Shown: positions 1 to 11,653 of the stretch, piece by piece
Position numbering within the stretch: position 1 is the stretch's first letter
Layout: each line of letters opens with the position of its first letter
DNA from: Streptomyces sp. HB132
GTDB taxonomy: Bacteria > Actinomycetota > Actinomycetes > Streptomycetales > Streptomycetaceae
Direction: 5' to 3'
Length of the DNA stretch: 64,000 bases
Assembly: GCF_016909575.1 (NCBI RefSeq)
Contig: NZ_JAFBGA010000022.1
Coordinates: 1-64,000, forward strand
Translations under genes and position numbers: made by a program
Notes under the pieces: model-generated
What the model saw: only the letters and a program-made list of their open reading frames with translations
Database searches by the model: none
What the model was told of the DNA's origin: nothing

Positions 1-61
1 GTCAGATCGTTCCGGTGGTCGGCTCCGGTACAGGGCCTGACGGACGGCCACCCTTGCGGAT

Positions 62-1432
62 TTAGGCGGTTGGGCCTTGACCTGGCGAGCCGCCGCACGG
101 TGCACCGGATCCAGGGGAGCCGGGCGCGGGCCCGTACGACGGGTACGGGGGCTGCGGTTGCTGCTGGTAGCCATGCGGCGGCTGGTACGGGTGCGGAACG
201 GCTCGGGCGGCGCTTCGGCGGCGGGAGCGGATGGCCATGACTGTCACTACGGCACCGATAAGGGCAGCCGCGCCTACACCCAGGCCGACCCAGAGGGTCG
301 TGCTGCCGCTGTCGGTCGGCGCGGCGACGGGCGGCTTGTCACTCTCCTCGGAGCCGCTCTTGGCCTTGGACGGCTCGGCGGAGGGCGTCGGGGACGCGGC
401 TGCGGCAAGGTCGGGGAGCGGATACTCGTCAGCGGGGCCCGGGTCACCCGGGGTTGTCAGCGCGATGCGGGGGCGGACAGCACCGTATCCCACGTAGTCA
501 TTGCGTTCGGCATCGCTGGTCGGACCGCTGGCGGTGTTGAGCAGGACCCGAAGGACTTGGTTGTTGGTCCAGTCCGGGTACTTGGACCAGATGAGGGCGG
601 CGGACGCGGAAGCGAGGGCGGAGGCGTCACTGGTCCCGTGCGACTCGCAGAACCCGGTATCACCGCCACAGGCGTGAACCATCTCTTCGCCCGGAGCAGA
701 CAAGTCCACCTGAGGACCGAACTGCGATTCATCTGTCTTTCGAAGATCTTTACCGATGGCGCCTACGCCCACGACACCAGGCGTTCCTGCAGGGTATTCA
801 ACAAAGTTTGTTTCGTCACCCGAGTTGCCGGCCGCAGCAAAGATGAGCGATCCCTCGGCTAGCGCGTAGGCGACTGCGTCATTCAATTGGTCCGAGCCAG
901 TACTAGATCCCAACGAGACATTGATGATCTTGGCATCACGGTCCACAGCGTAGCGAATTGCCTTCGAAAGGCTTTCATTGAAGCGCCTTTCCCCCTCAGC
1001 CTGGGTCGCACCCCCTCCCCCCTTCGGCATACGAATAGGAAGAATCTTGGCGCCCGGAGCCAATCCGAAAGCACCGTTCCCTCCAATAGCCTTGCCAGTA
1101 CCGGAGATCAAGCCAGCCATTCCTGTGCCGTGGCCGCTGTAATCGTCAAGTTCGTCACCCGGAAGGGTTTCTTCGAGGTTCAACCCATTGAGGACCCGAC
1201 CGACTAGATCAGCATTGGTCGCGTCTACACCTGAGTCGACAACGGCGACAGTGACTCCCTCGCCGGTACTGTCCCGCCACATCTCCTCAGCCTTCATGGC
1301 ATCGAGATGCCACTGCTCGGAGCGAGCAGAATCGGCTTGAGCAGGTGCGGAGAGACCCACTGCAAGCAATAGGCCTAGCACAAGGGGCAAAGCGACTCGA
1401 CGGGGGGCACCCCCGGTGCTGCTGGTACGCAT
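62..1432 (-). CDS. Mycosin-type S8 serine protease, copy 1 (type VII secretion)
   Basis: The 456-residue product looks like a membrane-anchored mycosin (MycP), the subtilisin-like protease of type VII (ESX) secretion. A signal peptide covers about residues 1-34. The S8 triad is visible as Asp66 (VVDSG), His101 (GHGT) and Ser268 (GTSDAS), with the oxyanion Asn203 (AAGNS). Cys255 and Cys262 could form a disulfide. A Pro/Ser linker leads to one membrane helix (about 379-401), then an Arg-rich stop and a Pro/Gln/Gly-rich cytoplasmic tail. The usual Pro after the GTSxAS motif is Ala. It lies 23 bases after the WXG-like gene and is probably cotranscribed. The tail is almost identical to that of copy 3 but not copy 2, which suggests gene conversion. 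Confidence 0.9.
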   Translation of the reverse strand: MRTSSTGGAPRRVALPLVLGLLLAVGLSAPAQADSARSEQWHLDAMKAEEMWRDSTGEGVTVAVVDSGVDATNADLVGRVLNGLNLEETLPGDELDDYSGHGTGMAGLISGTGKAIGGNGAFGLAPGAKILPIRMPKGGGGATQAEGERRFNESLSKAIRYAVDRDAKIINVSLGSSTGSDQLNDAVAYALAEGSLIFAAAGNSGDETNFVEYPAGTPGVVGVGAIGKDLRKTDESQFGPQVDLSAPGEEMVHACGGDTGFCESHGTSDASALASASAALIWSKYPDWTNNQVLRVLLNTASGPTSDAERNDYVGYGAVRPRIALTTPGDPGPADEYPLPDLAAAASPTPSAEPSKAKSGSEESDKPPVAAPTDSGSTTLWVGLGVGAAALIGAVVTVMAIRSRRRSAARAVPHPYQPPHGYQQQPQPPYPSYGPAPGSPGSGAPCGGSPGQGPTA

Positions 1433-1455
1433 CCGATTCCTCTGTTGTCTACGGC

Positions 1456-2854
1456 TCAGTCAATAACAGGCGGCACAGCCCGCCGACCACCTTGCTGCCA
1501 AGTCTCCTCGTCCTCCACGAGGTAGTCCGGACGCTCGCGGTCCTCACGCCGCGGGTCTCCTGGCGTCTGCGGAGCACTTCCCGCTCCGCGTCCTGCAGCA
1601 CCGGCGCCACGAGTGCCCTCGCCTGCAACTCCCCGAACCAGACCAGTGCCCCCGGGAGTAAAGGGCCGACCGAGCGAGCGTCCAGCCTGCTGAGGACGGC
1701 CGCCTACCACGCCTCCGGCCGCCTGAGCCCCCGCCATGCCCCATGGGCGGTCGGCCGCCAGGTGTTCCTTCGCTACCGATGACATTGCCGCGGGCCAATC
1801 CGTTTGCCGGGTAACCGGTGGATTGTGCAACAGGTCGGCCTCCGACAATTCCTCCATCCTGGGCAGGTCTGCCGACGATACCGCTCCCCAGATTTGCTCC
1901 GCCTGGCGAAAGAATCGGCAGGCGCACATTGCCTGCCGCCCTTCCACTCCTGGTGCTGAGCGGAAGGGCTGTTCCTCCAACTGCAAGGGGACCTGTGAGG
2001 GCAGGAGAGCTATCTGGCTTGCCTCCCACGGCAGAGGCCTGCGGCACAGCAGTTGGCGTGTCGGGCAGCGTGGCTACCCCAGCAATCTCCATGGCCACCG
2101 GCCTCGAAACCGGCGGCCCGGCCACGGTGGGCTGATCCGCCACCACTCGTGTGGCGGTCGTGGTACTGCCAGGACTGTCCACGCCTCTACCCTCGCCCAC
2201 CGGAACATGGGCGGTCGCACCGTCATTCGCCGGCCCGGACGTGAAGTCGCGACTATTGCTTGTGTTCAGCGCCCTATCGTCACGCTCCGGCACGATCGCC
2301 CCCGGCGGAGGCGGGAACGCCGGCTTCTCCAGGCCGTCCAACTGCGAGGCCGACAACGCGTACGACTGCGCCAGCTTCCGCATCTGTGCCGCCGCCTCCT
2401 GGCGGTTCGACTCCTTGGCGGCGAGCAGGGTCTCCAGGGACTTCTTCTCGACCGCCGACGCGTCCGGGTCGTTCCGCGCCTCCTTCGCCGCGTCCAGGTT
2501 CGCCTGTGCGCTCGCGTCCGTACGCGGGATGGACACCTGAGCCGAGGCGAGCGAGTCGGAGGCCTGCGCCAGCCACTTCGACGCGCCTTCGCTGTAATCG
2601 CCGAGGCGCAGCGTCGCGTTGGCCAGGTCCGCGCTCCAGGTACGGAAGGCTGTGGCGCCCTCGCCCTTCCACTCGACCGTCTGCGGACGGACCTTCAACT
2701 CCTCCGCGATCTCGCGGATCTCCTTGGCAGCACTGATCAACCGGTCCGACGCACCCTGGATCGCCCCACTGTTGGCCATGTCCAACCAGGCCAACATGGT
2801 CTCGTGAGTCATGCTGTCGAAGGGTGTGCCCTGTCCCGCTTCCCTGTGGTCCAT
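1456..2854 (-). pseudogene. WXG100-fold secreted-protein-like gene, copy 1 (frameshifted)
   Basis: The N-terminal domain of about 189 residues is helical and has a Trp-Lys-Gly turn at 62-64, as in WXG100 proteins. A Gly/Pro/Ser/Thr-rich middle with GGRP motifs follows. In copies 2 and 3 the protein ends with a conserved tail (RPDYLVEDEETWQQG, then RRxVPPV). Here a G5 run (C5 on the plus strand, 1728-1732) has one base too many, so translation as given ends at 1544 with a foreign Arg-rich tail (436 residues). The proper tail is present in another frame and stops at 1456. Removing one G would restore about 465 residues. This may be a true pseudogene, slippage/phase variation or a sequencing error. 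Confidence 0.8.
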
Positions 2855-2900
2855 CCCCAGCCCCCGTCCGTCCCCCCGTGCAGTACTTGCGTCAGTCGTC

Positions 2901-2928
2901 GTCAGATCGTTCCGGTGGTCGGCTCCGG
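2901..2928 (-). repeat. Array junction carrying a copied gene end
   Basis: This 28-base segment is identical to 1-28, 5704-5731 and 8709-8736. On the minus strand it encodes the last eight codons and TGA of the 168-codon gene. Here it has no gene in front of it: it is fused directly to the 3' flank of mycosin copy 2. This shows where recombination joined one unit to the next. Confidence 0.9.
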
Positions 2929-2961
2929 TACAGGGCCTGACGGACGGCCACCCTTGCGGAT

Positions 2962-4305
2962 TTAGGCGGTTGGGCCTTGACCTGGCGAGCCGCCGTACGG
3001 TGCACCGGATCCAGAAGCACCAGGAGAAGCCCCGGACGACGGATACCGGGGCTGCTGCTGGTACGGGTGCGGGACAGTGGGGGCAGCGCCCCGGCGGCGG
3101 GAGCGGATGGCCACGACGGCCACTGCAGCACCGATGAGAGCGGCCGCACCGATACCCAGACCGACCCAGAGCGTCGTGTTGCCACTCTCCTCGGAGGCCG
3201 GCGCTGCTGCGGCCGGCTTGTCGCTCTCCTCGGAGCCGCCCGCGGCCTTGGTGGGTTCGGCGGAGGGCGTCGGGGACTCGGCCGCCGCGAGGTCGGGGAG
3301 CGGGTACTCGTCGGCGGGGCCCGGGTCGCCAGGGGTCTTCAGGGCGATCCGGGGGCGGACGATGCCGTAGCCGATGTCGTCCACACGCTCCTCACCGGTC
3401 GTGGGGCCACCGGCCGTGTTGAGCAGTACCCGAAGGACCTGGTTGTTGGTCCAGTCCGGGTACTTGGACCAGATGAGGGCGGCGGAGGCGGAAGCGATGG
3501 CTGTCGCATCACTGGTTCCACTGCTCTTACACAACCCAGACCCCCCGCTGCATGCGTGGACCATATCCACCCCAGGTGCAGAGAGATCCACTTGTGGCCC
3601 GTACTGTGAAATCTGCGCCCTCTGCAAATTTTTCCCGACAGAGCCCACGCCGACTACCCCTGGGGTGCCAGCCGGATACTGCACTGCATTACCGCTTTCA
3701 GCACTGTTACCCACAGCCGCAAAAATTAGCGAGCCTTTCGCCAGGGCGTATTTTACGGCATCGTCGAGTTGCCGTGACCCTGATTCGTTCCCCAAGGAAA
3801 CGCTAATGACCCTGGCACCCCGATCTGCCGCATACCGAATGGCCGCCGTCAAATCATCGTTAAAATTCTTACTTCCGGTGGCACCATTCACTTTGCCGGT
3901 GTCATCCCTCATGCGAACCGGGAGAATATTGACGCCCGGAGCTAGCCCGAAAGCCCCGTCTCCAGCCGCAGATTCGCCTGTTCCCGCAATGAGGGCCGCC
4001 ATCCCGGTCCCATGGTTGTCGTAATCTGTGTGTTCATCACCTGGCGAATCCGATGCCAAGTCTTTTCCATCCAGCACACGCCCTTGAAGATCGGGGTTAG
4101 CCGCGTCCACACCTGAGTCGATGACAGCGACCGTAATATTTTCGCCTCTACTTGTCGCCCACATCTGCTCAGCCTGCATGGCATCCAAATGCCACTGCCT
4201 GGAGCGAACCGAATCAGCACAGGCAGGACTGACCGCAGCAAGCAGCAGTGTCACTGCGGCGGTGGCTACGAATCCGCGACGGACAGCCGCCGTGCTGTTA
4301 CTCAT
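2962..4305 (-). CDS. Mycosin-type S8 serine protease, copy 2 (type VII secretion)
   Basis: This 447-residue mycosin homologue has a signal peptide (about 1-30), triad Asp63, His98 and Ser265 and oxyanion Asn200. A Pro/Ser-rich stalk, one membrane helix (TTLWVGLGIGAAALIGAAVA) and a short Pro/Gly cytoplasmic tail follow. The catalytic domain is clearly different from copies 1 and 3, and its codons are unusually AT-rich for Streptomyces (CTA, ATT, TTT, AAT, GTA, AAA occur in a short stretch near 3720-3880). That fits imported sequence set inside native ends. It starts 23 bases after its WXG-like partner gene, so the pair is probably translated from one message. Confidence 0.9.
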   Translation of the reverse strand: MSNSTAAVRRGFVATAAVTLLLAAVSPACADSVRSRQWHLDAMQAEQMWATSRGENITVAVIDSGVDAANPDLQGRVLDGKDLASDSPGDEHTDYDNHGTGMAALIAGTGESAAGDGAFGLAPGVNILPVRMRDDTGKVNGATGSKNFNDDLTAAIRYAADRGARVISVSLGNESGSRQLDDAVKYALAKGSLIFAAVGNSAESGNAVQYPAGTPGVVGVGSVGKNLQRAQISQYGPQVDLSAPGVDMVHACSGGSGLCKSSGTSDATAIASASAALIWSKYPDWTNNQVLRVLLNTAGGPTTGEERVDDIGYGIVRPRIALKTPGDPGPADEYPLPDLAAAESPTPSAEPTKAAGGSEESDKPAAAAPASEESGNTTLWVGLGIGAAALIGAAVAVVAIRSRRRGAAPTVPHPYQQQPRYPSSGASPGASGSGAPYGGSPGQGPTA

Positions 4306-4328
4306 CCTGTTTCCTCTGCCTTTTCTTT

Positions 4329-5657
4329 TTAGCCAACGACAGGTGGCACTACTCGTCGAGCACCCTGCTGCCAGGTCTCCTCGTCTTCGACGAGGTAGTC
4401 AGGCCTCTCACGGTCGTCCCGCCGCGGGTCTGCAGCTCGTTGAGGGGTGGCCGCTGCTCCTCGTCCCAGTTGCTGCCCCGCGCCACTAGCGCCGATGCTG
4501 GTCGGCCCGCCACGTACCAGACCCGTGCCACCTGGAGTGAACGATCGAGCTGCGGCGCGCCCTGCCTGTTGGGGCCGCCCGCCCACCAAGCCACCAGTCT
4601 CCCCGGCGACTCGGCGGCCGCCGATACCGCCCTGGCTGCCGCCTCTAGCTCCACTCATGCCAGCACCCTGACCCACCTGGCCCATGGCGCCGCGGCCGCC
4701 TTGAGTTCCTTCCTCACCGATCACTGTGCCGCGAGCAAGTCCACCGTTCGTTCGGCCGGGCGCCTGAGCAACCGGACGTCCCCCGACAATTCCGCTGTCG
4801 CTGGTCGGTCGGCCGGTCTGTGCTCCGAAGCTCCCGCTGCTGGATGTCATGGAGGGGCGTGACATGCCAGTTGGCTTGCCGCCGGTATGCGGAGCTGAAG
4901 TCGTGGAGCGTCTACCCACACCAGTCGGCAGGATGGGGGCCATCTGGTATCCCCCATCCGCCTTGGTCGGACCTGGCGTCGTAGGCGCCGAGACTGACGG
5001 AGCGGAGTGCGCAGGTGACAACGGAGACGTCCCAGCAATTTCCATACTGACAGGCCGCGACACAACGTTTGTGGACGAGGACGTCACATCCGAACGTCCA
5101 GTAATCGCTGCGTCAACTCTTCTCTCGCTGGGCCCAGATTCGCTTCGCGAGCCGCCGCTCGATCCGTCCGTATCTGCTTGGCGGTCGATATACCCATTAC
5201 CAGCGTCAAGCCCATCAACCTGCTCCGGCACGATCGCCCCCGGCGGAGGCGGGAACGCCGGCTTCTCCAGGCCGTCCAGCTGCGAGGCCGACAACGCGTA
5301 CGACTGCGCCAGCTTCCGCATCTGTGCCGCCGCCTCCTGGCGGTTCGACTCCTTGGCGGCGAGCAGGGTCTCCAGGGACTTCTTCTCGACCGCCGACGCG
5401 TCCGGGTCGTTCCGCGCCGCCTTCGCCGCGTCCAGGTTCGCCTGTGCGCTCGCGTCCGTACGCGGGATGGACACCTGAGCCGAGGCGAGCGAGTCGGAGG
5501 CCTGCGCCAGCCACTTCAACGCGCCTTCGCTGTAATCGCCGAGGCGCAGCGTCGCGTTGGCCAGGTCCGCGCTCCAGGTCGGAAGGCTGTGGCGCCCTCG
5601 CCCTTCCACAGTCATGCTGTCGAAGGGTGTGCCCTGTCCCGCTTCCCTGTGGTCCAT
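4329..5657 (-). CDS. WXG-like secreted-protein homologue, copy 2 (first helix and WXG turn lost)
   Basis: The 442-residue product has the same layout as the other copies: N-terminal helical domain, Gly/Pro/Ser-rich middle with GGRP motifs, and the conserved C-terminal tail with YLVED, which fits the YxxxD/E type VII export motif. Compared with copy 3, residues 17-71 are replaced by ten unrelated residues (VEGRGRHSLP). The DNA shows two changes: a 134-base deletion (equivalent to 2673-2806 of copy 1) and a 1-base deletion about 16 bases away. Together they remove 135 bases and restore the frame. The first helix and Trp-Lys-Gly turn are gone, so normal WXG helical-hairpin folding is unlikely. 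Confidence 0.8.
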   Translation of the reverse strand: MDHREAGQGTPFDSMTVEGRGRHSLPTWSADLANATLRLGDYSEGALKWLAQASDSLASAQVSIPRTDASAQANLDAAKAARNDPDASAVEKKSLETLLAAKESNRQEAAAQMRKLAQSYALSASQLDGLEKPAFPPPPGAIVPEQVDGLDAGNGYIDRQADTDGSSGGSRSESGPSERRVDAAITGRSDVTSSSTNVVSRPVSMEIAGTSPLSPAHSAPSVSAPTTPGPTKADGGYQMAPILPTGVGRRSTTSAPHTGGKPTGMSRPSMTSSSGSFGAQTGRPTSDSGIVGGRPVAQAPGRTNGGLARGTVIGEEGTQGGRGAMGQVGQGAGMSGARGGSQGGIGGRRVAGETGGLVGGRPQQAGRAAARSFTPGGTGLVRGGPTSIGASGAGQQLGRGAAATPQRAADPRRDDRERPDYLVEDEETWQQGARRVVPPVVG

Positions 5658-5703
5658 CCCCAGCCCCCGTCCGTCCCCCCGTGCAGTACTTGCGTCAGTC
5701 GTC

Positions 5704-5731
5704 GTCAGATCGTTCCGGTGGTCGGCTCCGG
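5704..5731 (-). repeat. Array junction carrying a copied gene end
   Basis: This is the same 28-base segment as at 2901-2928, fused to the 3' flank of mycosin copy 3. Downstream of it (minus strand) the sequence continues into the leader of WXG-like gene copy 2, as at the intact locus at 8709. Confidence 0.9.
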
Positions 5732-5764
5732 TACAGGGCCTGACGGACGGCCACCCTTGCGGAT

Positions 5765-7150
5765 TTAGGCGGTTGGGCCTTGACCTGGCGAGCCGCCGTA
5801 CGGTGCACCGGATCCAGGAGAGCCGGGCGCGGGCCCGTACGACGGGTACGGGGGCTGCGGTTGCTGCTGGTAGCCATGCGGCGGCTGGTAAGGGTGCGGA
5901 ACGGCTCGGGCGGCGCTTCGGCGGCGGGAGCGGATGGCCATGACTGTCACTACGGCACCGATAAGGGCAGCCGCGCCTACACCCAGGCCGACCCAGAGGG
6001 TCGTGCTGCCGCTGTCGGTCGGCGCGGCGACGGGCAGCTTGTCACTCTCCTCGGAGCCGCTCTTGGCCTTGGACGGCTCGGCGGAGGGCGTCGGGGACCC
6101 GGCTGCGGCAAGGTCGGGGAGCGGATACTCGTCAGCGGGGCCCGGGTCACCCGGGGTTGTCAGCGCGATGCGGGGGCGGACGATGCCGTAGCCGATGTCA
6201 TCCGCACGCTTCTCCCCGGTCGTGGGGCCACCGGCCGTGTTGAGCAGTACCCGAAGAACCTGGTTGTTGGTCCAGTCCGGGTACTTGGACCAGATGAGGG
6301 CGGCGGACGCGGAAGCGAGGGCTGAAGCGCCACTGGACCCATGCCCTCGACACAGGCCGGTCTCGCCCGCGCACGCATAGACCAGGTTCTCGCCAGGAGC
6401 CGAGAGATCCACCTGCGAACCGTACTGTGACTCCTCGGTCTTCTGGAGATTCTGGCCGATAGCACCCACACCTACGACTCCAGGCGTACCTGCCGGATAC
6501 TCGACCAAATTGGCCTTGTTACCACTGTTTCCCACCGACGCAAAGATCAGCGCGTTCTTTTTCAGCGCATACTCGACAGCATCCGCCAATGCCGACGATT
6601 CTGTCGTATGGCCCAAGGAAATATTGATCACCTTGGCACCCTCATCGGCAGCGAACCGGATGGCAGCAGGAATCTCCGCGTTGAACTTTCTATCCGATTC
6701 CGCCTGGTTTGCAGCCTTTGTGGCGTCAGATAGGCGGATGGGAAGAATTTTCACTCCTGGGGCAAGCCCGAAAGCTCCATCTCCCCCTCCGCTCTTGCCT
6801 GTACCTGCGATGAGACCAGCCATCGAGGTGCCGTGCCCGTCGTAATCCGTGTGCTCGTCCCCAGACGGACCAGTGGCCAGGTCTTTCCCATCGAGAACCT
6901 GGCCGTCAAGGTCCTGATTCGTCTCGACACCAGAGTCGATGACGGCAACAGTGACCCCTCTGCCGGTGGTCATCTGCCACATCTCCTCGGCCTTCATCGC
7001 ATCGAGGTGCCACTGCTTGGACCGCACCGTGTCCGCATAGGCAGGAGCGGTCGGCAGAACTACCAGCAGCAGTCCCAGCAACATGGAAGCCGTCGTCGCC
7101 CCGCGGCGACGACCCACACCTGGGGTGATGCTGGAACTGCTGCTGCGCAT
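5765..7150 (-). CDS. Mycosin-type S8 serine protease, copy 3 (type VII secretion)
   Basis: This is a 461-residue mycosin homologue. I start it at the ATG at 7150, which gives a standard signal peptide (Arg-rich n-region, then a Leu/Val core ending TAPAYA). The open frame continues further upstream only because it runs through the preceding gene. Triad: Asp72, His106 and Ser273 (the motif is GSSGAS, with Ser in place of the usual Thr before the nucleophile); oxyanion Asn208. A stalk, one membrane helix and a Pro/Gln-rich cytoplasmic tail follow, almost identical to copy 1. It is 28 bases downstream of its intact WXG-like partner. Confidence 0.9.
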   Translation of the reverse strand: MRSSSSSITPGVGRRRGATTASMLLGLLLVVLPTAPAYADTVRSKQWHLDAMKAEEMWQMTTGRGVTVAVIDSGVETNQDLDGQVLDGKDLATGPSGDEHTDYDGHGTSMAGLIAGTGKSGGGDGAFGLAPGVKILPIRLSDATKAANQAESDRKFNAEIPAAIRFAADEGAKVINISLGHTTESSALADAVEYALKKNALIFASVGNSGNKANLVEYPAGTPGVVGVGAIGQNLQKTEESQYGSQVDLSAPGENLVYACAGETGLCRGHGSSGASALASASAALIWSKYPDWTNNQVLRVLLNTAGGPTTGEKRADDIGYGIVRPRIALTTPGDPGPADEYPLPDLAAAGSPTPSAEPSKAKSGSEESDKLPVAAPTDSGSTTLWVGLGVGAAALIGAVVTVMAIRSRRRSAARAVPHPYQPPHGYQQQPQPPYPSYGPAPGSPGSGAPYGGSPGQGPTA

Positions 7151-7178
7151 GGAATTCCCTTGCCGAGTTCTCACGGAT

Positions 7179-8663
7179 TTAATCGATAACGGGAGGCACA
7201 ATTCGTCGGCCGCCCTGCTGCCAGGTTTCCTCGTCCTCAACCAGGTAGTCGGGCCGCTCTCCGTCGTCGTCACGCCGGGCTTCGCGTGATCGGGAGTCGA
7301 GGCGCGGGGGCATTCCGCCTCGCACCCCGCTACGCCCGTCAGCCGGAGCAGTTCCCCTGACCAGCCCCGAGCCACCAGGGGTGAACGGTCGTCCGCTCGC
7401 CCGCCCACCCTGCTGGGCCCGGCTGACGAGACCGCCCTGCTCAGTCGCCAACCGACGGCTTCCCGAGATGCCGTTCTGGCCTGCGGGTGCACCTCCCATA
7501 CCCATGCCGGGGCCATGGCTCATCGCGCCGCGCCCCAGGGCTCCGGCCGACTGTGGGTTTTCTCCGCCGATGACTTTGCCCCTGGGGAGGTTACCTGTGG
7601 GGCGACCGAGATTCTGCGGAACTGGACGGCCTCCAGTGATGCCACCATTCGCCGGAGGGCGACCGGCGGGTCCTGATCCAAGCGCGCCCGTCGTGCCTGG
7701 CATCGGGGTACGGCCGATCATGCTCGGCCCACCGCCATCAGCCCTCGCCGGCCTACCAGCGCCCGTAAAAGCAGGCGGGACGAGACCGGTGGGCGAAATG
7801 ATCTGGTCCGCTCTCGGCCCGATCGTGGAGGTCGTCGGAGTGACGGGCTGTGCCGACTGAGTACTCGGCGGCGCCGCCACCGCATCGATTCTCATGTCAA
7901 CGGACGGCGTCACGGAAGCACGCGCCGCCGTGGGCACGTCCACGCTCGCCGAGTGGACAGCCGCACTCCCGGCTGTCTCAACTCGAGGCCTCTCACCGGT
8001 GTAGTGCTGAGCGGGTGCATCGATGCTGCCAGCACCGAAACTGCTCTCTGATCCCCTGCTCAGACTTTCTTCCTGGACACGCCGATCTGAATCAGGCGGC
8101 ACGATCGCCCCCGGCGGAGGCGGGAACGCCGGCTTCTCCAGGCCGTCCAGCTGCGAGGCCGACAACGCGTACGACTGCGCCAGCTTCCGCATCTGTGCCG
8201 CCGCCTCCTGGCGGTTCGACTCCTTGGCGGCGAGCAGGGTCTCCAGGGACTTCTTCTCGACCGCCGACGCGTCCGGGTCGTTCCGCGCCTCCTTCGCCGC
8301 GTCCAGGTTCGCCTGTGCGCTCGCGTCCGTACGCGGGATGGACACCTGGGCCGAGGCGAGCGAGTCGGAGGCCTGCGCCAGCCACTTCGACGCGCCTTCG
8401 CTGTAATCGCCGAGGCGCAGCGTCGCGTTGGCCAGGTCCGCGCTCCAGGTACGGAAGGCTGTGGCGCCCTCGCCCTTCCACTCGACCGTCTGCGGACGGA
8501 CCTTCAACTCCTCCGCGATCTCGCGGATCTCCTTGGCAGCACTGATCAACCGGTCCGACGCACCCTGGATCGCCCCACTGTTGGCCATGTCCAACCAGGC
8601 CAACATGGTCTCGTGAGTCATGCTGTCGAAGGGTGTGCCCTGTCCTGCTTCCCTGTGGTCCAT
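7179..8663 (-). CDS. WXG100-fold secreted-protein-like gene, copy 3 (intact)
   Basis: The 494-residue product is the intact reference copy. Residues 1-189 are helical, with Trp62-Lys63-Gly64 as the likely helix-turn-helix WXG motif, and end in a Pro-rich break (PAFPPPPGAIVP). Residues 190 to about 465 are low-complexity Gly/Pro/Ser/Thr with GGRP motifs and differ from the other copies. The last 26 or so residues are conserved and contain YLVED, which fits the YxxxD/E export motif of type VII substrates, followed by a Trp. It lies between the 168-codon helical-protein gene and its mycosin. I infer that it is a type VII substrate or a PPE/EspA-like partner; no specific activity can be assigned. 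Confidence 0.8.
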   Translation of the reverse strand: MDHREAGQGTPFDSMTHETMLAWLDMANSGAIQGASDRLISAAKEIREIAEELKVRPQTVEWKGEGATAFRTWSADLANATLRLGDYSEGASKWLAQASDSLASAQVSIPRTDASAQANLDAAKEARNDPDASAVEKKSLETLLAAKESNRQEAAAQMRKLAQSYALSASQLDGLEKPAFPPPPGAIVPPDSDRRVQEESLSRGSESSFGAGSIDAPAQHYTGERPRVETAGSAAVHSASVDVPTAARASVTPSVDMRIDAVAAPPSTQSAQPVTPTTSTIGPRADQIISPTGLVPPAFTGAGRPARADGGGPSMIGRTPMPGTTGALGSGPAGRPPANGGITGGRPVPQNLGRPTGNLPRGKVIGGENPQSAGALGRGAMSHGPGMGMGGAPAGQNGISGSRRLATEQGGLVSRAQQGGRASGRPFTPGGSGLVRGTAPADGRSGVRGGMPPRLDSRSREARRDDDGERPDYLVEDEETWQQGGRRIVPPVID

Positions 8664-8709
8664 CCCCAGCCCCCGTCCGTCCCCCGTGCAGTACTTGCGT
8701 CAGTCGTCG

Positions 8710-9216
8710 TCAGATCGTTCCGGTGGTCGGCTCCGGCTTGGGTGTGTCCGGAGTCGTGTCCCCGTTCCGCCGGCCCGTCGGGTCGTACTCGCCCCCGTAC
8801 TGCTCCTTCGCCCCGTCCGAGATCTCGAGCATGCGGCGCCGGATGTCGATGTCCAGGTTCTCGTAGCCGTTGTGCGAGGCCAGGACCGCGATGCTCATGC
8901 CCTCTATGGAGTCCGACAGAGTCTTCGAGAGCGTCTCCAGCTCGGTGATCACCGTCTGGTACGACATGAACAGGCTTGCGGCCTCGGCCCAGTGGTTGTC
9001 GCCGCCGCCGAACTGGGCGCGCTTCATCGGGTCCTGGCCGAGCTGGGTCGCGTCGGCCGGGGACTCCTTTAGTGCGATCAGTATCTCGTCGATGCGATTG
9101 CGGAACTTCTTGAACGACGTGAGCTCGGTGGCCAGTTCGACTGCCGCGGCAGCCGACGTGACACCCATGAACGGCACAGCCGCCATACCCACTACGGAAC
9201 CCTCACTCGGCAGCAC
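8710..9216 (-). CDS. Small helical protein heading the T7SS array (hypothetical)
   Basis: The 168-residue product is not recognised by name. It starts at a GTG (9216) with a good ribosome site (GGGGAG, about 8 bases upstream). The N-terminus has a short hydrophobic Ala/Val-rich stretch; the rest is predicted to be mostly charged helix (about 30-140), then a Pro/Thr-rich end. Its size and context suggest a WXG100-like partner or ESX-type chaperone of the downstream WXG-like protein, but no clear WXG motif is visible. Its last eight codons and stop (PEPTTGTI) are repeated at each unit junction, so it marks the upstream border of the duplication. Confidence 0.7.
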   Translation of the reverse strand: MLPSEGSVVGMAAVPFMGVTSAAAAVELATELTSFKKFRNRIDEILIALKESPADATQLGQDPMKRAQFGGGDNHWAEAASLFMSYQTVITELETLSKTLSDSIEGMSIAVLASHNGYENLDIDIRRRMLEISDGAKEQYGGEYDPTGRRNGDTTPDTPKPEPTTGTI

Positions 9217-9319
9217 AGCACACTCCCCGTATCCGGCCGGCCACTGCTTCAGGGAACACTGTAGTCAGCAACGGTGACACTCCGCATGCACGGGCCACGG
9301 GTGCAACGCGCATCACACG

Positions 9320-11653
9320 TCACGGCCGCGGCGTGGCCACGGCCGCCTGCGGGCGGATCGGGAGGCGGTTGACCGGGCGGCCGGTCGCCGCGCGGACCGC
9401 CGATGCCACCGCCGCCGGGGAGGTCACGACCGGTGCCGCCGACGCCGGTTTGGCCCCGAAGGGGGCCACCACGTCCCGCTCCTCGATCAGTTTCACGATG
9501 CGGATGTCCGGCGCGTCCAGGGCCGTGGGAAGCGCGTACCCGGTGAGGTCCGGGTGCCGGATCACACCGCGGGCGGTACGGAGGTTCTCCGTGAGGGCCG
9601 CGCCGATGCCCTGGGTGACGCCCGCCTCGATGCGGGTCGCCAGTTGGGAGGGGTTGAGGATGCGGCCGACGTCCTGGGCGACGGCCATCTCCACCACCCG
9701 TACCGAGCCGAGTTCGATGTCGACGTCGACCACCGCGCGGACCGCGCAGAAGGCCAGGCCGACGAACGCGTCGCCCTGGCCGGACTCGTCCAGGGGCTCG
9801 GTGGGGTGGGGGCGGCACTGGGCGGTCGCCCAGAGTTCCTTGCCGTCCATCGCCTCACTGACCGTCGTGGACAGCACACCGTCGTACGAGGTGATCTTGC
9901 CGTCGGCGATCTGGAGCAGCTCCGTGGACATCCCGAACTTGTGGGCCAGCGGCTGGAGCAACTGGGTACGGACCATCTTGGCCGCGCGTTCGATCGCGCC
10001 GCCCGAGACCCAGGTGTGGCGGCCGTGCGTCGCCGGGCCCGCCGGGGGCTGGTCGGTGTCCACCGCCGCGACGTGGACCTCTTCGACGCCCAGGGTCTCC
10101 TGGACGATCTGGCGGGCGAGCGTGGTGAAGCCCTGGCCGGTCTCCACGGCGGCGCAGATCACGGTGGCGACACCGTCATGGACACGGACCGTGGCCGTGG
10201 AGACCTCGTCCGCTCCCTCCGCTCCGAGCATGTGGACCATGCCGAGGGCGTAGCCGACGCCCCTGCGGACGGCTCCGGGCTCACCGGCGCCCTCCAGACC
10301 CCCGGGAAGCAGCCAGTCGTCCTCCGGGGCGTCCTTGGGGAGCGCGGGGAGCGGGAAGTCGCGCAGCTCGCCGAGGAGTTCGGCGACGGGGGCAGGGCAG
10401 GTCACGGTCTGGCTGGTGGGGAGGATGTCTCCGGTGGACAGGGCGTTGCGCAGGCGCAGTTCGACCGGGTCGATGCCCAGCTTCGCCGCCAGCTTGTCCA
10501 TCTGGCCCTCGTACGCCGCGCAGACCTGCATCGCACCCTCGCCCCGGACATGTCCGGAGGGCGGGTTGTTCGTGCGGACCGCCCAGCCCTCGATGAAGGC
10601 GTGCGGGACGACGTACGGTCCGCAGGCGAAGGCGACGGCGGCGGCCAGGGATTCGGACGAGGAGTCGGCGTACGCGCCCGCGTCGAGCAGGATCTGCGCC
10701 TCCACCTTGACCAGCCGGCCCTCGCCGTCCGCGTGGTGGCGGTAGCGCAGCAGGGTCGGGTGGCGGTGGGCGTGCCCGAGGAAGGACTCCTCGCGGGTGG
10801 CGGCCAGCTTGACGGGGCAGCCGGTGCGCAGGGCGAGGAGGCCCAGCGGGATCTGGAAGCCCGGGTCCTCCCGGTCGCCGGTCGCCCCGGGGACACCGGT
10901 CACGACGACCTTGACCCGCTCGGGGTCGAGGCCGAAGCAGGCGGCGGCCAGGTCGCGGTCGGTGTGCGGGTCGGTGGACGCGGTGTAGAGCTCGACGCCG
11001 CCGTCGGGGCGGGGCACGGCGAGGCCGGCCTCGGCTCCGATCGGGGCGGGGTCCTGGCGGCCGATGCGGTACAGGCCCTCGACGATGACCTCGCCCACGG
11101 TGTCCGGGTCGCCGTAGCGCAGCGGGATGTGGCGGATGAGGTTGCCGTCGGGGTGCAGGGGTTCGGCGGCGAAGGCCTTCTCGGGGTCGGTGACCGGTTC
11201 GAGGACCTCGTACTCGACGGCGATCGCGGCGGCGGCCAGCCGTGCGGTGTCGGGGTGGTCCGCGGCGACGGCGGCGATCGCCTCGCCGTGGTGGCGCACG
11301 AGATCGGTGGCGAACACGGGGCGGTCGACCACCCGGCGGCCGTACGAGCCGTCCCCGGGGATGTCCTCGTGCGTGACGACCGCGTGGACGCCCGGCATGC
11401 CGACCGCGGCCGTCGTGTCGATCGACAGGATGCGCGCGTGCGGGTGCGGGGAACGCAGCACCGCGGCCCACAACAGGCCCTCGGCCCAGAGGTCGGCCGC
11501 GTACGGGAAGGTGCCCTCGGTCTTGGCGCGGGCGTCGGCGGGCGGCAGCGAGACGCCCAGTCCGAGCGCGGGCGGCTCCTGGCCCGGGTCGGGGCCCTCC
11601 GGCGGCGGTGTCGTGCGCGTGGTGCTGGTCGCGGTGGCTGCGTCGCTGGTCAC
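9320..11653 (-). CDS. Molybdenum-hydroxylase (xanthine dehydrogenase family) large subunit
   Basis: The 777-residue product is the molybdopterin-binding subunit of a xanthine-dehydrogenase-family enzyme. The N-terminal a/b-hammerhead domain (about 40-160) and the long Mo-binding region match the family. Three hallmark sites are altered. The Gly-rich GGGFGGK-type loop reads VPGATGDREDPG (254-265). The RGFGxPQ motif reads RGEGAMQ (370-376). The catalytic-Glu segment GxKxxGEPP reads GAKPASAAP (733-741), placing Ala739 where Glu is expected. It is last in an operon after the FAD and 2Fe-2S subunits. Substrate is unknown; activity on purines should not be assumed. Confidence 0.8.
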   Translation of the reverse strand: MTSDAATATSTTRTTPPPEGPDPGQEPPALGLGVSLPPADARAKTEGTFPYAADLWAEGLLWAAVLRSPHPHARILSIDTTAAVGMPGVHAVVTHEDIPGDGSYGRRVVDRPVFATDLVRHHGEAIAAVAADHPDTARLAAAAIAVEYEVLEPVTDPEKAFAAEPLHPDGNLIRHIPLRYGDPDTVGEVIVEGLYRIGRQDPAPIGAEAGLAVPRPDGGVELYTASTDPHTDRDLAAACFGLDPERVKVVVTGVPGATGDREDPGFQIPLGLLALRTGCPVKLAATREESFLGHAHRHPTLLRYRHHADGEGRLVKVEAQILLDAGAYADSSSESLAAAVAFACGPYVVPHAFIEGWAVRTNNPPSGHVRGEGAMQVCAAYEGQMDKLAAKLGIDPVELRLRNALSTGDILPTSQTVTCPAPVAELLGELRDFPLPALPKDAPEDDWLLPGGLEGAGEPGAVRRGVGYALGMVHMLGAEGADEVSTATVRVHDGVATVICAAVETGQGFTTLARQIVQETLGVEEVHVAAVDTDQPPAGPATHGRHTWVSGGAIERAAKMVRTQLLQPLAHKFGMSTELLQIADGKITSYDGVLSTTVSEAMDGKELWATAQCRPHPTEPLDESGQGDAFVGLAFCAVRAVVDVDIELGSVRVVEMAVAQDVGRILNPSQLATRIEAGVTQGIGAALTENLRTARGVIRHPDLTGYALPTALDAPDIRIVKLIEERDVVAPFGAKPASAAPVVTSPAAVASAVRAATGRPVNRLPIRPQAAVATPRP

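What the first reader, a model, noticed from the sequence alone, without database searches (positions are those of the whole stretch)
1..8708. Conserved ends, divergent core that crosses the gene boundary
In every unit the first 190 or so residues of the WXG-like protein and the last 130 or so residues of the mycosin are nearly the same. The contiguous core between them (substrate middle plus protease catalytic domain) is different. The core of unit 2 uses AT-rich codons foreign to Streptomyces. This is the pattern expected if substrate tail and protease domain are exchanged as one cassette by recombination in flanking homology, keeping cognate pairs together.
Basis: partly seen in the sequence, partly recalled or inferred. 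Interest (0 to 1): 0.85.

Follow-up and report, generated by a model that had tools for sequence, protein, structure and literature searches.

The report
Tandem mycosin-substrate pairs with swapped cores
A soil Streptomyces carries a row of at least four secreted-protein and protease gene pairs whose outer ends are almost identical while the middle, spanning both genes, belongs to old and distinct types that are also found in other species, as if the secreted tail and its protease were inherited together as one matched set.

Summary
Three tandem units in the window (a fourth starts contig C4 of the same genome) each encode a substrate with a PPE-like N-terminal domain and a mycosin. U1 and U3 are 99% identical (DNA) over the first ~189 substrate codons, 48-65% through substrate tail and protease catalytic domain, and 94% over the protease end; U2 is less regular. 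Substrate tail plus protease domain thus behaves as one unit of evolution between recombining ends. Corrections: low GC3 marks every core compared, so it is not foreign; no recent cross-species import is seen, so cores look like old types kept while ends are homogenised; protease cores sometimes change alone. Unexpectedly, 13 of 80 related loci have more proteases than substrates and none the reverse. Cognate processing at the T7SS is inferred.

The parts
8710..9216 (-). esx168: small helical protein, one copy at the head of the array; presumed PE/Esx-like partner of the substrate N domain
   Evidence: A paralogue (31% identical) heads the same trio at the T7SS locus C13; one hit in 74 of the 75 loci that have any, two in L079; AF2 helices 5-37 and 62-102, mean pLDDT only 63; no Pfam family for this member
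8097..8663 (-). U3 substrate, conserved N part (189 codons): PPE-like helical domain with WXG
   Evidence: 99% DNA identity to U1; AF2 helices 17-173, 10-residue pLDDT means 74-96; best folds PPE15/PPE41, Z 13.1-12.7; W62 and G64 invariant in 60
7179..8096 (-). U3 substrate core (predicted disordered, Pro/Gly-rich) and C-terminal ERPDYLVEDEETW tail
   Evidence: 36-39% aa identity of the core to other units; closest CB02058 56%; pLDDT mostly below 50 after residue 203
6323..7150 (-). U3 mycosin signal region and catalytic domain (core)
   Evidence: 63-67% aa to the other units, 89% to the S. mutomycini second protease; D/H/N/S catalytic columns intact
5765..6322 (-). U3 mycosin conserved end: end of catalytic domain, linker, TM anchor, tail
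   Evidence: 94% DNA to U1; hydropathy peak 2.2; in U1/U3/S. mutomycini the genealogy switches near RPRIALTTPG
4329..5657 (-). U2 substrate; lacks 134+1 nt of the conserved start, WXG turn included
2962..4305 (-). U2 mycosin; catalytic core closest to S. clavifer L081 (79% aa)
   Evidence: TIGR03921 317.5 bits, cut-off 278.75
1456..2854 (-). U1 substrate; reading frame changes in the core (ORF 2854-1544; tail in another frame)
   Evidence: core 82% aa to S. mutomycini unit 1
62..1432 (-). U1 mycosin; catalytic core 94% aa to the S. mutomycini first protease
   Evidence: TIGR03921 315.3 bits
1..61 (-). spacer after U1, contig edge; array presumably continues as U0 at G000:C4:1-2522 (substrate cut at its start by the contig end, mycosin open)

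Best explanation
This is a locus of type VII secretion (T7SS) substrate-protease pairs, single in most related Streptomyces and expanded here to at least four tandem units. Shown from sequence: one contiguous block (disordered substrate tail, spacer, mycosin signal region and catalytic domain) is a unit of evolution with old, distinct types shared between species, while the substrate's folded N domain and the mycosin's membrane anchor and tail follow the genome or species they sit in. Homologous recombination or gene conversion through the near-identical ends is the only process I found that gives this. Inferred: the conserved ends are the parts that face common machinery (substrate N domain with its Esx-like partner for export; mycosin anchor for the T7SS membrane complex), and the variable block is the part that works outside the cell, where the anchored mycosin cuts the exported tail. 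The two halves tend to stay together because a tail and the groove that cuts it must match, and also because adjacent DNA with little homology inside it can recombine only at its ends. Types persist because something outside the cell (phage, rival or kin) favours rare types.
For: Identity profile and segments. Core trees and AU tests: U1+S. mutomycini unit 1 100/100 in both cores, rejected in substrate N part (p 0.0008); U3+S. mutomycini protease 2 100/99 in protease core, rejected in protease end (p 2e-7); SM10+S. atroolivaceus 100/100 in both cores, rejected in substrate N part (p 0.02) but not in protease end (p 0.42); {U0-U3} rejected in cores (p 0.0013, 8.7e-5), not in ends (0.20, 0.39). 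Site patterns for U1, U3, S. mutomycini unit 1, as U1=U3: U1=mut: substrate N 35:0, substrate core 24:321, protease core 21:221, protease end 69:25, with 19 of those 25 in one stretch next to the catalytic domain. Pairs with protease core 80% or more: 26 of 3240 pairs of 81 units, substrate core median 69% against 33-36% in the bins where the protease core is 50-70%. Partial Mantel substrate core-protease core given xdh and substrate N, 30 loci, r=0.26 p=0.005. The 5' boundary lies near the end of the folded domain. The same genome has two EccC loci, and near the C13 one are EccB, EccE, a mycosin and the same esx-substrate-mycosin trio. EspB precedent: PE/PPE fold, C-terminal domain cut by MycP1 (PMC9811218, passages read).
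Against: Cutting, export and cognate specificity are not shown by any search. Pairing is not strict (L078/L086, L048/L057/L070, ADI95-17). No recent core transfer between species is seen. In other arrays the protease ends are mostly not more alike than the catalytic domains, e.g. L044 65/66, L055 69/63, L075 62/63; clearly closer ends only in L040 (64/82), L079 (56/67) and one pair of L112 (75/89). In the best substrate-N tree S. mutomycini sits beside U0, so the four units are not a clean clade there, and in the protease end U1 with S. mutomycini is weakly present (45/90). Substrate N part and protease core are themselves correlated given xdh (r=0.53). In mycobacteria MycP protease activity is dispensable for secretion (PMC5082899, abstract).
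Confidence: 0.62

Rival explanations
1. Linkage only: the core block moves or is kept as one piece because recombination can start only in the conserved ends; substrate and protease need not match.
For: Little homology inside the core for crossover (48-69% DNA between units); protease core seems to change alone in L078/L086 and others; extra proteases sit without substrates.
Against: Does not explain why both halves diversify, or why the 5' border of the core lies near a domain border.
Confidence: 0.3
2. Old types with differential loss: several ancient paralogous pairs existed in the ancestor, each species kept one or a few, and only the ends were homogenised by gene conversion inside each genome; cores do not move.
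For: No protease pair of 1935 is closer in its core than in the xdh flank at third positions; within-genome ends are closer than orthologous ends (U1/U3 99 and 94 against U1/S. mutomycini 93 and 86).
Against: 64 of 80 related loci hold a single pair at my thresholds, so many-unit ancestors must be assumed often. In both accounts the core is one unit and the ends recombine, so this is a variant of the best explanation more than its opposite.
Confidence: 0.35
3. Fast divergence after recent tandem duplication, with no recombination between histories (relaxed or positive selection on the core).
For: The substrate core is predicted disordered, which tolerates change.
Against: U1's cores are 89 and 93% identical to S. 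mutomycini's and 48 and 65% to U3's, while its ends show the reverse; AU tests.
Confidence: 0.03
4. Assembly artefact: repeats collapsed or chimaeric in a draft genome.
For: The array breaks the assembly (contig end inside the repeat); two of three substrates carry deletions or a frame change.
Against: Related core types occur in independent assemblies (S. mutomycini 94 and 89%, CB02058 82%, S. clavifer 79% aa in the protease core), and the single-unit locus is in records such as NC_015953.1. The cores are different sequences, which collapse cannot create. The damage and the copy number remain open.
Confidence: 0.05

Closest known systems
agr and comQXP quorum-sensing specificity loci
   Same: Divergent middle crossing gene borders, flanked by conserved parts (layout of both loci recalled), in discrete types whose members match each other; comQ 65-70% identical between clusters and not congruent with gyrA (PMC4408185, passages read).
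   Different: Those hold a peptide signal and a receptor kinase with shown specificity; here a secreted protein and a protease, no kinase in the unit, no function shown.
Tandem-paralogue clusters recombining through homology blocks (S. aureus esaG, lpl; Streptococcus tipC)
   Same: Conserved blocks, variable parts between, and recombination between paralogues; copy-number change for esaG; both tied to T7SS toxins (PMC9484751, abstract and passages read). [quoted passage not shown] that paper is not held.
   Different: Those are immunity genes or lipoproteins; here the block joins a secreted substrate to its putative protease, and types are shared across species.
Mycosin MycP1 and EspB of ESX-1
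   Same: Membrane-anchored subtilisin-like protease and a PE/PPE-fold substrate with WXG and YxxxD motifs and a C-terminal domain cut by the protease (PMC9811218, passages read).
   Different: To my recollection single-copy and not described as polymorphic pairs; there PE and PPE parts are one chain, here the small partner is a separate gene; the Y-L-V-E-D motif sits at the far C-terminus.
S. pratensis Sfla_1620/Sfla_1621 (mycosin and ESX-1-like protein)
   Same: Adjacent pair listed among 59 unusually divergent core genes inside one species (PMC4239341, section 11 read).
   Different: By gene order (near bldB/DUF397, as at C13 here) probably the T7SS-locus paralogue; conserved ends and a core crossing the gene border are not described in the section read.

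Membership tests
T7SS mycosin (TIGR03921) | Profile score over curated cut-off 278.75 bits | tested here: met
   U1 315.3, U2 317.5, U3 328.9 bits; U0 not scanned
T7SS mycosin (TIGR03921) | Subtilase catalytic D, H, N, S present | tested here: met
   97 of 100 aligned proteases, U0-U3 included; motif roles recalled
T7SS mycosin (TIGR03921) | C-terminal membrane anchor | tested here: met
   19-residue hydropathy maxima 2.2-2.4 in the last 130 residues of U0-U3
T7SS mycosin (TIGR03921) | Association with the EccBCDE complex | not testable with these tools
   EccB, EccE and EccC are encoded elsewhere in the genome
PPE / EspB-like substrate | PPE fold | tested here: inconclusive
   Top six rows are PPE proteins, Z 13.1-12.4 within residues 8-184, then BAR-type domains from Z 11.2 down and EspB at about 10; helical bundles reach such Z without kinship at times; Foldseek's best E is 0.0036
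PPE / EspB-like substrate | WXG turn | tested here: met
   W62 and G64 invariant in 60 aligned substrates; lost in U2
PPE / EspB-like substrate | YxxxD/E secretion motif | tested here: met
   PDYLxED in the consensus of 60, but at the far C-terminus
PPE / EspB-like substrate | Match to the Pfam PPE family | tested here: not met
   no PPE match at E 0.1 for U1, U2 or U3 substrate
WXG100 (TIGR03930) | Score over cut-off 44.85 | tested here: not met
   15.6 bits (U1) and 15.3 bits (U3), no match for U2
agr/comQXP-type specificity locus | Divergent core crossing gene border between conserved ends | tested here: met
agr/comQXP-type specificity locus | Signal and receptor kinase in the unit | tested here: not met
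   Each unit holds only substrate and protease; no kinase match
Polymorphic toxin-immunity locus | Toxin domain in the variable tail | tested here: inconclusive
   no Pfam or NCBIfam domain in the tails of U1-U3 and none of PADLOC in U3; U3 tail predicted disordered
Recombining tandem-paralogue cluster | Homology blocks at both ends and mosaic histories | tested here: met

The most novel reading that the evidence does not exclude
The locus is a self/non-self type system built on T7SS: each mycosin handles only tails of its own type, and proteases of other types are kept behind the resident pair, without their substrates, as protection against tails of other strains, the way orphan immunity genes are kept. 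Support: at my thresholds 13 of 80 loci have more proteases than substrates and none has more substrates; 12 of 15 extra proteases keep D/H/N/S; in this genome's array four of four proteases are intact but only one of the three fully visible substrates is; tail-only substrate remnants precede extra proteases in L044 and L112; S. mutomycini keeps a U3-type protease with no substrate behind a U1-type pair.
Probability: 0.14. Interest if true: 0.88.

Novelty: new variant of a known kind. Interest (0 to 1): 0.62.

Why it matters
Mycosins are required for T7SS in mycobacteria, yet why they are proteases is open (their activity is dispensable for secretion, PMC5082899 abstract). A natural panel of many matched and a few mismatched tail-protease pairs in soil bacteria would let one ask directly whether mycosin specificity follows its neighbour's tail. 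It also gives a bacterial case of a unit of evolution that ignores the gene border and lies close to domain borders, with types older than species.

Tried and rejected
Foreign, AT-rich core of unit 2: rejected, GC3 is low in all cores tabulated. Recent horizontal import of cores: not found. Plasmid donor: 7 Streptomyces plasmid records match at 1e-30, best places all under 50% identity over at most 71% of the protein. Toxin or defence domain in the substrate: none in Pfam and NCBIfam (U1-U3) or PADLOC (U3); the mycosin itself matches PADLOC's general subtilase and IetS models weakly. Sequence match of the substrate profile to a solved structure: one chance-level match (E 0.66); the PPE resemblance is by fold only, and Foldseek had no match at E 0.001 or better. 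The fold of esx168 came out at mean pLDDT 63 and was not searched further. The 48-locus distance comparison was uninformative because everything correlates with depth, so the 30 closer loci were used; the limit (xdh protein distance to the window of 0.115 or less) was chosen by me. The groups given to the AU tests were chosen after seeing the identity table. hmmalign output was dropped for MAFFT. Ends homogenised in every array: not so. Searches in print for mycosin-substrate arrays or polymorphism (listings seen): nothing beyond PMC4239341; only open-licence papers are held, so this is weak.
Full report
WHAT IS THERE. The window is the first 64 kb of contig C22 of a 7.75-Mb draft genome in 44 contigs. 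I take it to be a Streptomyces close to S. mutomycini: the xanthine dehydrogenase large subunit beside the array is 98% identical to that species'. On the - strand, in order of transcription, come a small helical protein (esx168, 9216-8710), then U3 (substrate 8663-7179, mycosin 7150-5765), U2 (5657-4329, 4305-2962) and U1 (2854-~1456, 1432-62). A fourth unit, U0, begins contig C4 inside its substrate; the two contig ends do not overlap, so adjacency is inferred. The three window mycosins pass the TIGR03921 cut-off. More distant mycosin-like proteins of this genome are on C13 (two), C9 and C8 (45% identity or less).

THE OBSERVATION. Over the first ~500 nt of the substrate the units are 98-100% identical where both have sequence, and identity falls to 40-76% in the core. 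By segment (DNA) U1/U3 read 99, 48, 65, 94 for substrate N part, substrate core, protease catalytic part, protease end; U0/U3 read 96, 48, 69, 84. U2 lacks 134+1 nt of the conserved start, and U1's substrate lacks 41 nt relative to the S. mutomycini counterpart and loses frame. The 5' border of the core, about codon 185, falls near the end of the folded domain: the AlphaFold model of the U3 substrate has helices over residues 17-173 (10-residue pLDDT means 74-96) and is mostly below 50 after residue 203. That domain matches PPE proteins best (Z 13.1-12.4), before BAR domains at 11.2 and below, so PPE-like is likely but not certain. The 3' border, for U1/U3 against S. mutomycini, is near the end of the catalytic domain, before linker and membrane anchor.

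RELATED LOCI. A scan of named genomes gave 80 Streptomyces loci; the tool kept the best 80 of 189. Flanking genes are shared by about half: xdh large subunit in 48 of 80, esx168 in 66 of 80, an MFS gene in 36 of 80, some loci being cut by contig ends. With my thresholds, 64 of 80 hold one substrate and one protease, 11 one and two, L044 one and three, L112 none and three (cut by its contig end), L079 two and two, and L083 and L092 none and one (cut). In a sample of 121 genomes, this one included, 22 have a match at 1e-130 or better, so the locus is not universal at that level of identity.

THE TEST ASKED FOR. Seventeen to nineteen units gave DNA trees of four segments. U1 joins S. mutomycini unit 1 at 100/100 in both cores; U3 joins CB02058 in the substrate core (100/100), and S. 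mutomycini protease 2 (100/99), then CB02058, in the protease core; U2 joins S. clavifer in the substrate core (98/93) and S. clavifer with WC-3549 protease b in the protease core (90/89); SM10 joins S. atroolivaceus at 100/100 in both. ADI95-17 disagrees: with NBC_00154 in the substrate core, near U2 in the protease core. Forcing U1 with S. mutomycini in the substrate N part is rejected (p 0.0008), as is U3 with S. mutomycini protease 2 in the protease end (p 2e-7) and SM10 with S. atroolivaceus in the substrate N part (p 0.02); in the protease end the last is not rejected (p 0.42) and U1 with S. mutomycini is weakly present (45/90). Forcing U0-U3 together is rejected in both cores (p 0.0013, 8.7e-5) and not in the ends (0.20, 0.39). 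The groups tested were chosen after seeing the identity table, so these p values are somewhat generous. In 30 loci close to the window, counted in protein trees, the two cores share 8 of 27 splits, esx168 and substrate N part 11, xdh and protease end 9, protease core and protease end 2, protease core and xdh 1; label permutation gives means of 0.15-0.24 for the six comparisons permuted. Substrate N part shares 6 with the protease core and 5 with the substrate core, so decoupling there is partial. Single-site patterns for U1, U3 and S. mutomycini unit 1 flip from 35:0 to 24:321 and 21:221 and back to 69:25.

HOW TO READ IT. The block from substrate tail to protease catalytic domain has its own history; the ends follow the genome more closely. 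That needs recombination. It does not need recent transfer: of 1935 between-locus protease pairs none has a core closer than its xdh flank at third positions. The simplest account is old types kept for a long time, with ends overwritten inside each genome and species. This homogenising of ends is clear in the window and S. mutomycini, and in two other arrays, but not in most arrays elsewhere. Low GC3 of all cores fits sequence that seldom recombines, an idea of mine that was not tested. Among 81 paired units, protease cores of 80% or more go with substrate cores of median 69%, against 33-36% where the protease core is 50-70%; L097/L088 is the main exception (81% and 42%). The reverse mismatch, substrate core kept and protease core changed, is seen in L078/L086, L048/L070, L057/L070 and others. 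So the pair is a strong tendency, not a rule. The most variable stretch of the catalytic domain, residues 97-120, with window entropies of 2.0 and 2.7 against a mean of 1.26, aligns after the ILPIR strand of subtilases; that this stretch lines the substrate groove is recalled.

MECHANISM. The genome has two EccC loci (C13 and C8); C13 also has EccB, EccE, a mycosin, and an esx-substrate-mycosin trio of the same build (the trio's mycosin scores 263.5, just under the TIGR03921 cut-off). In ESX-1, EspB has a PE/PPE fold and its C-terminal domain is cut by MycP1 (PMC9811218, passages read); MycP is needed for complex stability while its protease activity is dispensable for secretion (PMC5082899, abstract). 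By analogy I infer that the tail is exported and cut by the anchored mycosin next to it. Nothing here shows export or cutting.

AN UNEXPECTED PATTERN. Proteases outnumber substrates in 13 of 80 loci and never the reverse, at my thresholds; 12 of the 15 extra proteases keep the catalytic residues. In this genome's array all four proteases are intact and two of the three fully visible substrates are damaged. S. mutomycini has a U1-type pair followed, 141 nt on, by a U3-type protease with no substrate between. This looks like orphan immunity genes, and is the basis of the novel case. Extra proteases may instead assist processing or secretion, and draft assemblies may hide units.

LIMITS. Draft assemblies; one genome per species; substrate cores align poorly; functional steps are inferred. 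Earlier print: S. pratensis Sfla_1620/1621, a mycosin and its neighbour, are listed as unusually divergent core genes (PMC4239341, section 11 read); by gene order probably the C13-type copy (DUF397 gene near EccE).

Noticed in passing
80 related loci, e.g. L040:4736-6094, L075:4815-6188, L055:4897-6225: Extra mycosins without a substrate in front: 13 of 80 loci have more proteases than substrates, none the reverse.
   Followed up: partly
L044:13171-14409 and L052:12527-13789: Two related extra mycosins have lost three of the four catalytic residues in the alignment (DRDA, DYDG at the D/H/N/S columns), so pseudoproteases may exist in this family.
   Followed up: no
L018:2853-3476 and 8802-11090; L040:7284-9629: Large (762-781 aa) proteins downstream of the array with a W-x-G near the start; in the window's genome the copy next to the array looks like a C-terminal remnant. 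No NCBIfam match for the two large ones.
   Followed up: partly
G000:C13 (L019) and G000:C8: Two EccC loci in the genome, each with a mycosin-like protein nearby; C13 carries a second esx-substrate-mycosin trio.
   Followed up: partly
window 62-8663 and 15 other tabulated units: Third-position GC of the core is low in every unit compared (protease core 0.53-0.76) against 0.79-0.97 in the substrate start, an odd and steady drop inside two genes.
   Followed up: partly
window 8710-9216 and related loci: esx168 and the substrate N part have the most similar trees of all segments compared (11 of 27 splits; partial Mantel 0.66 given xdh), as expected of partners or of close linkage.
   Followed up: partly
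L078 and L086: Two species with xdh protein at 100% identity but protease catalytic domains only 74% alike, while the substrate core is 81%: the protease core seems replaced alone.
   Followed up: no
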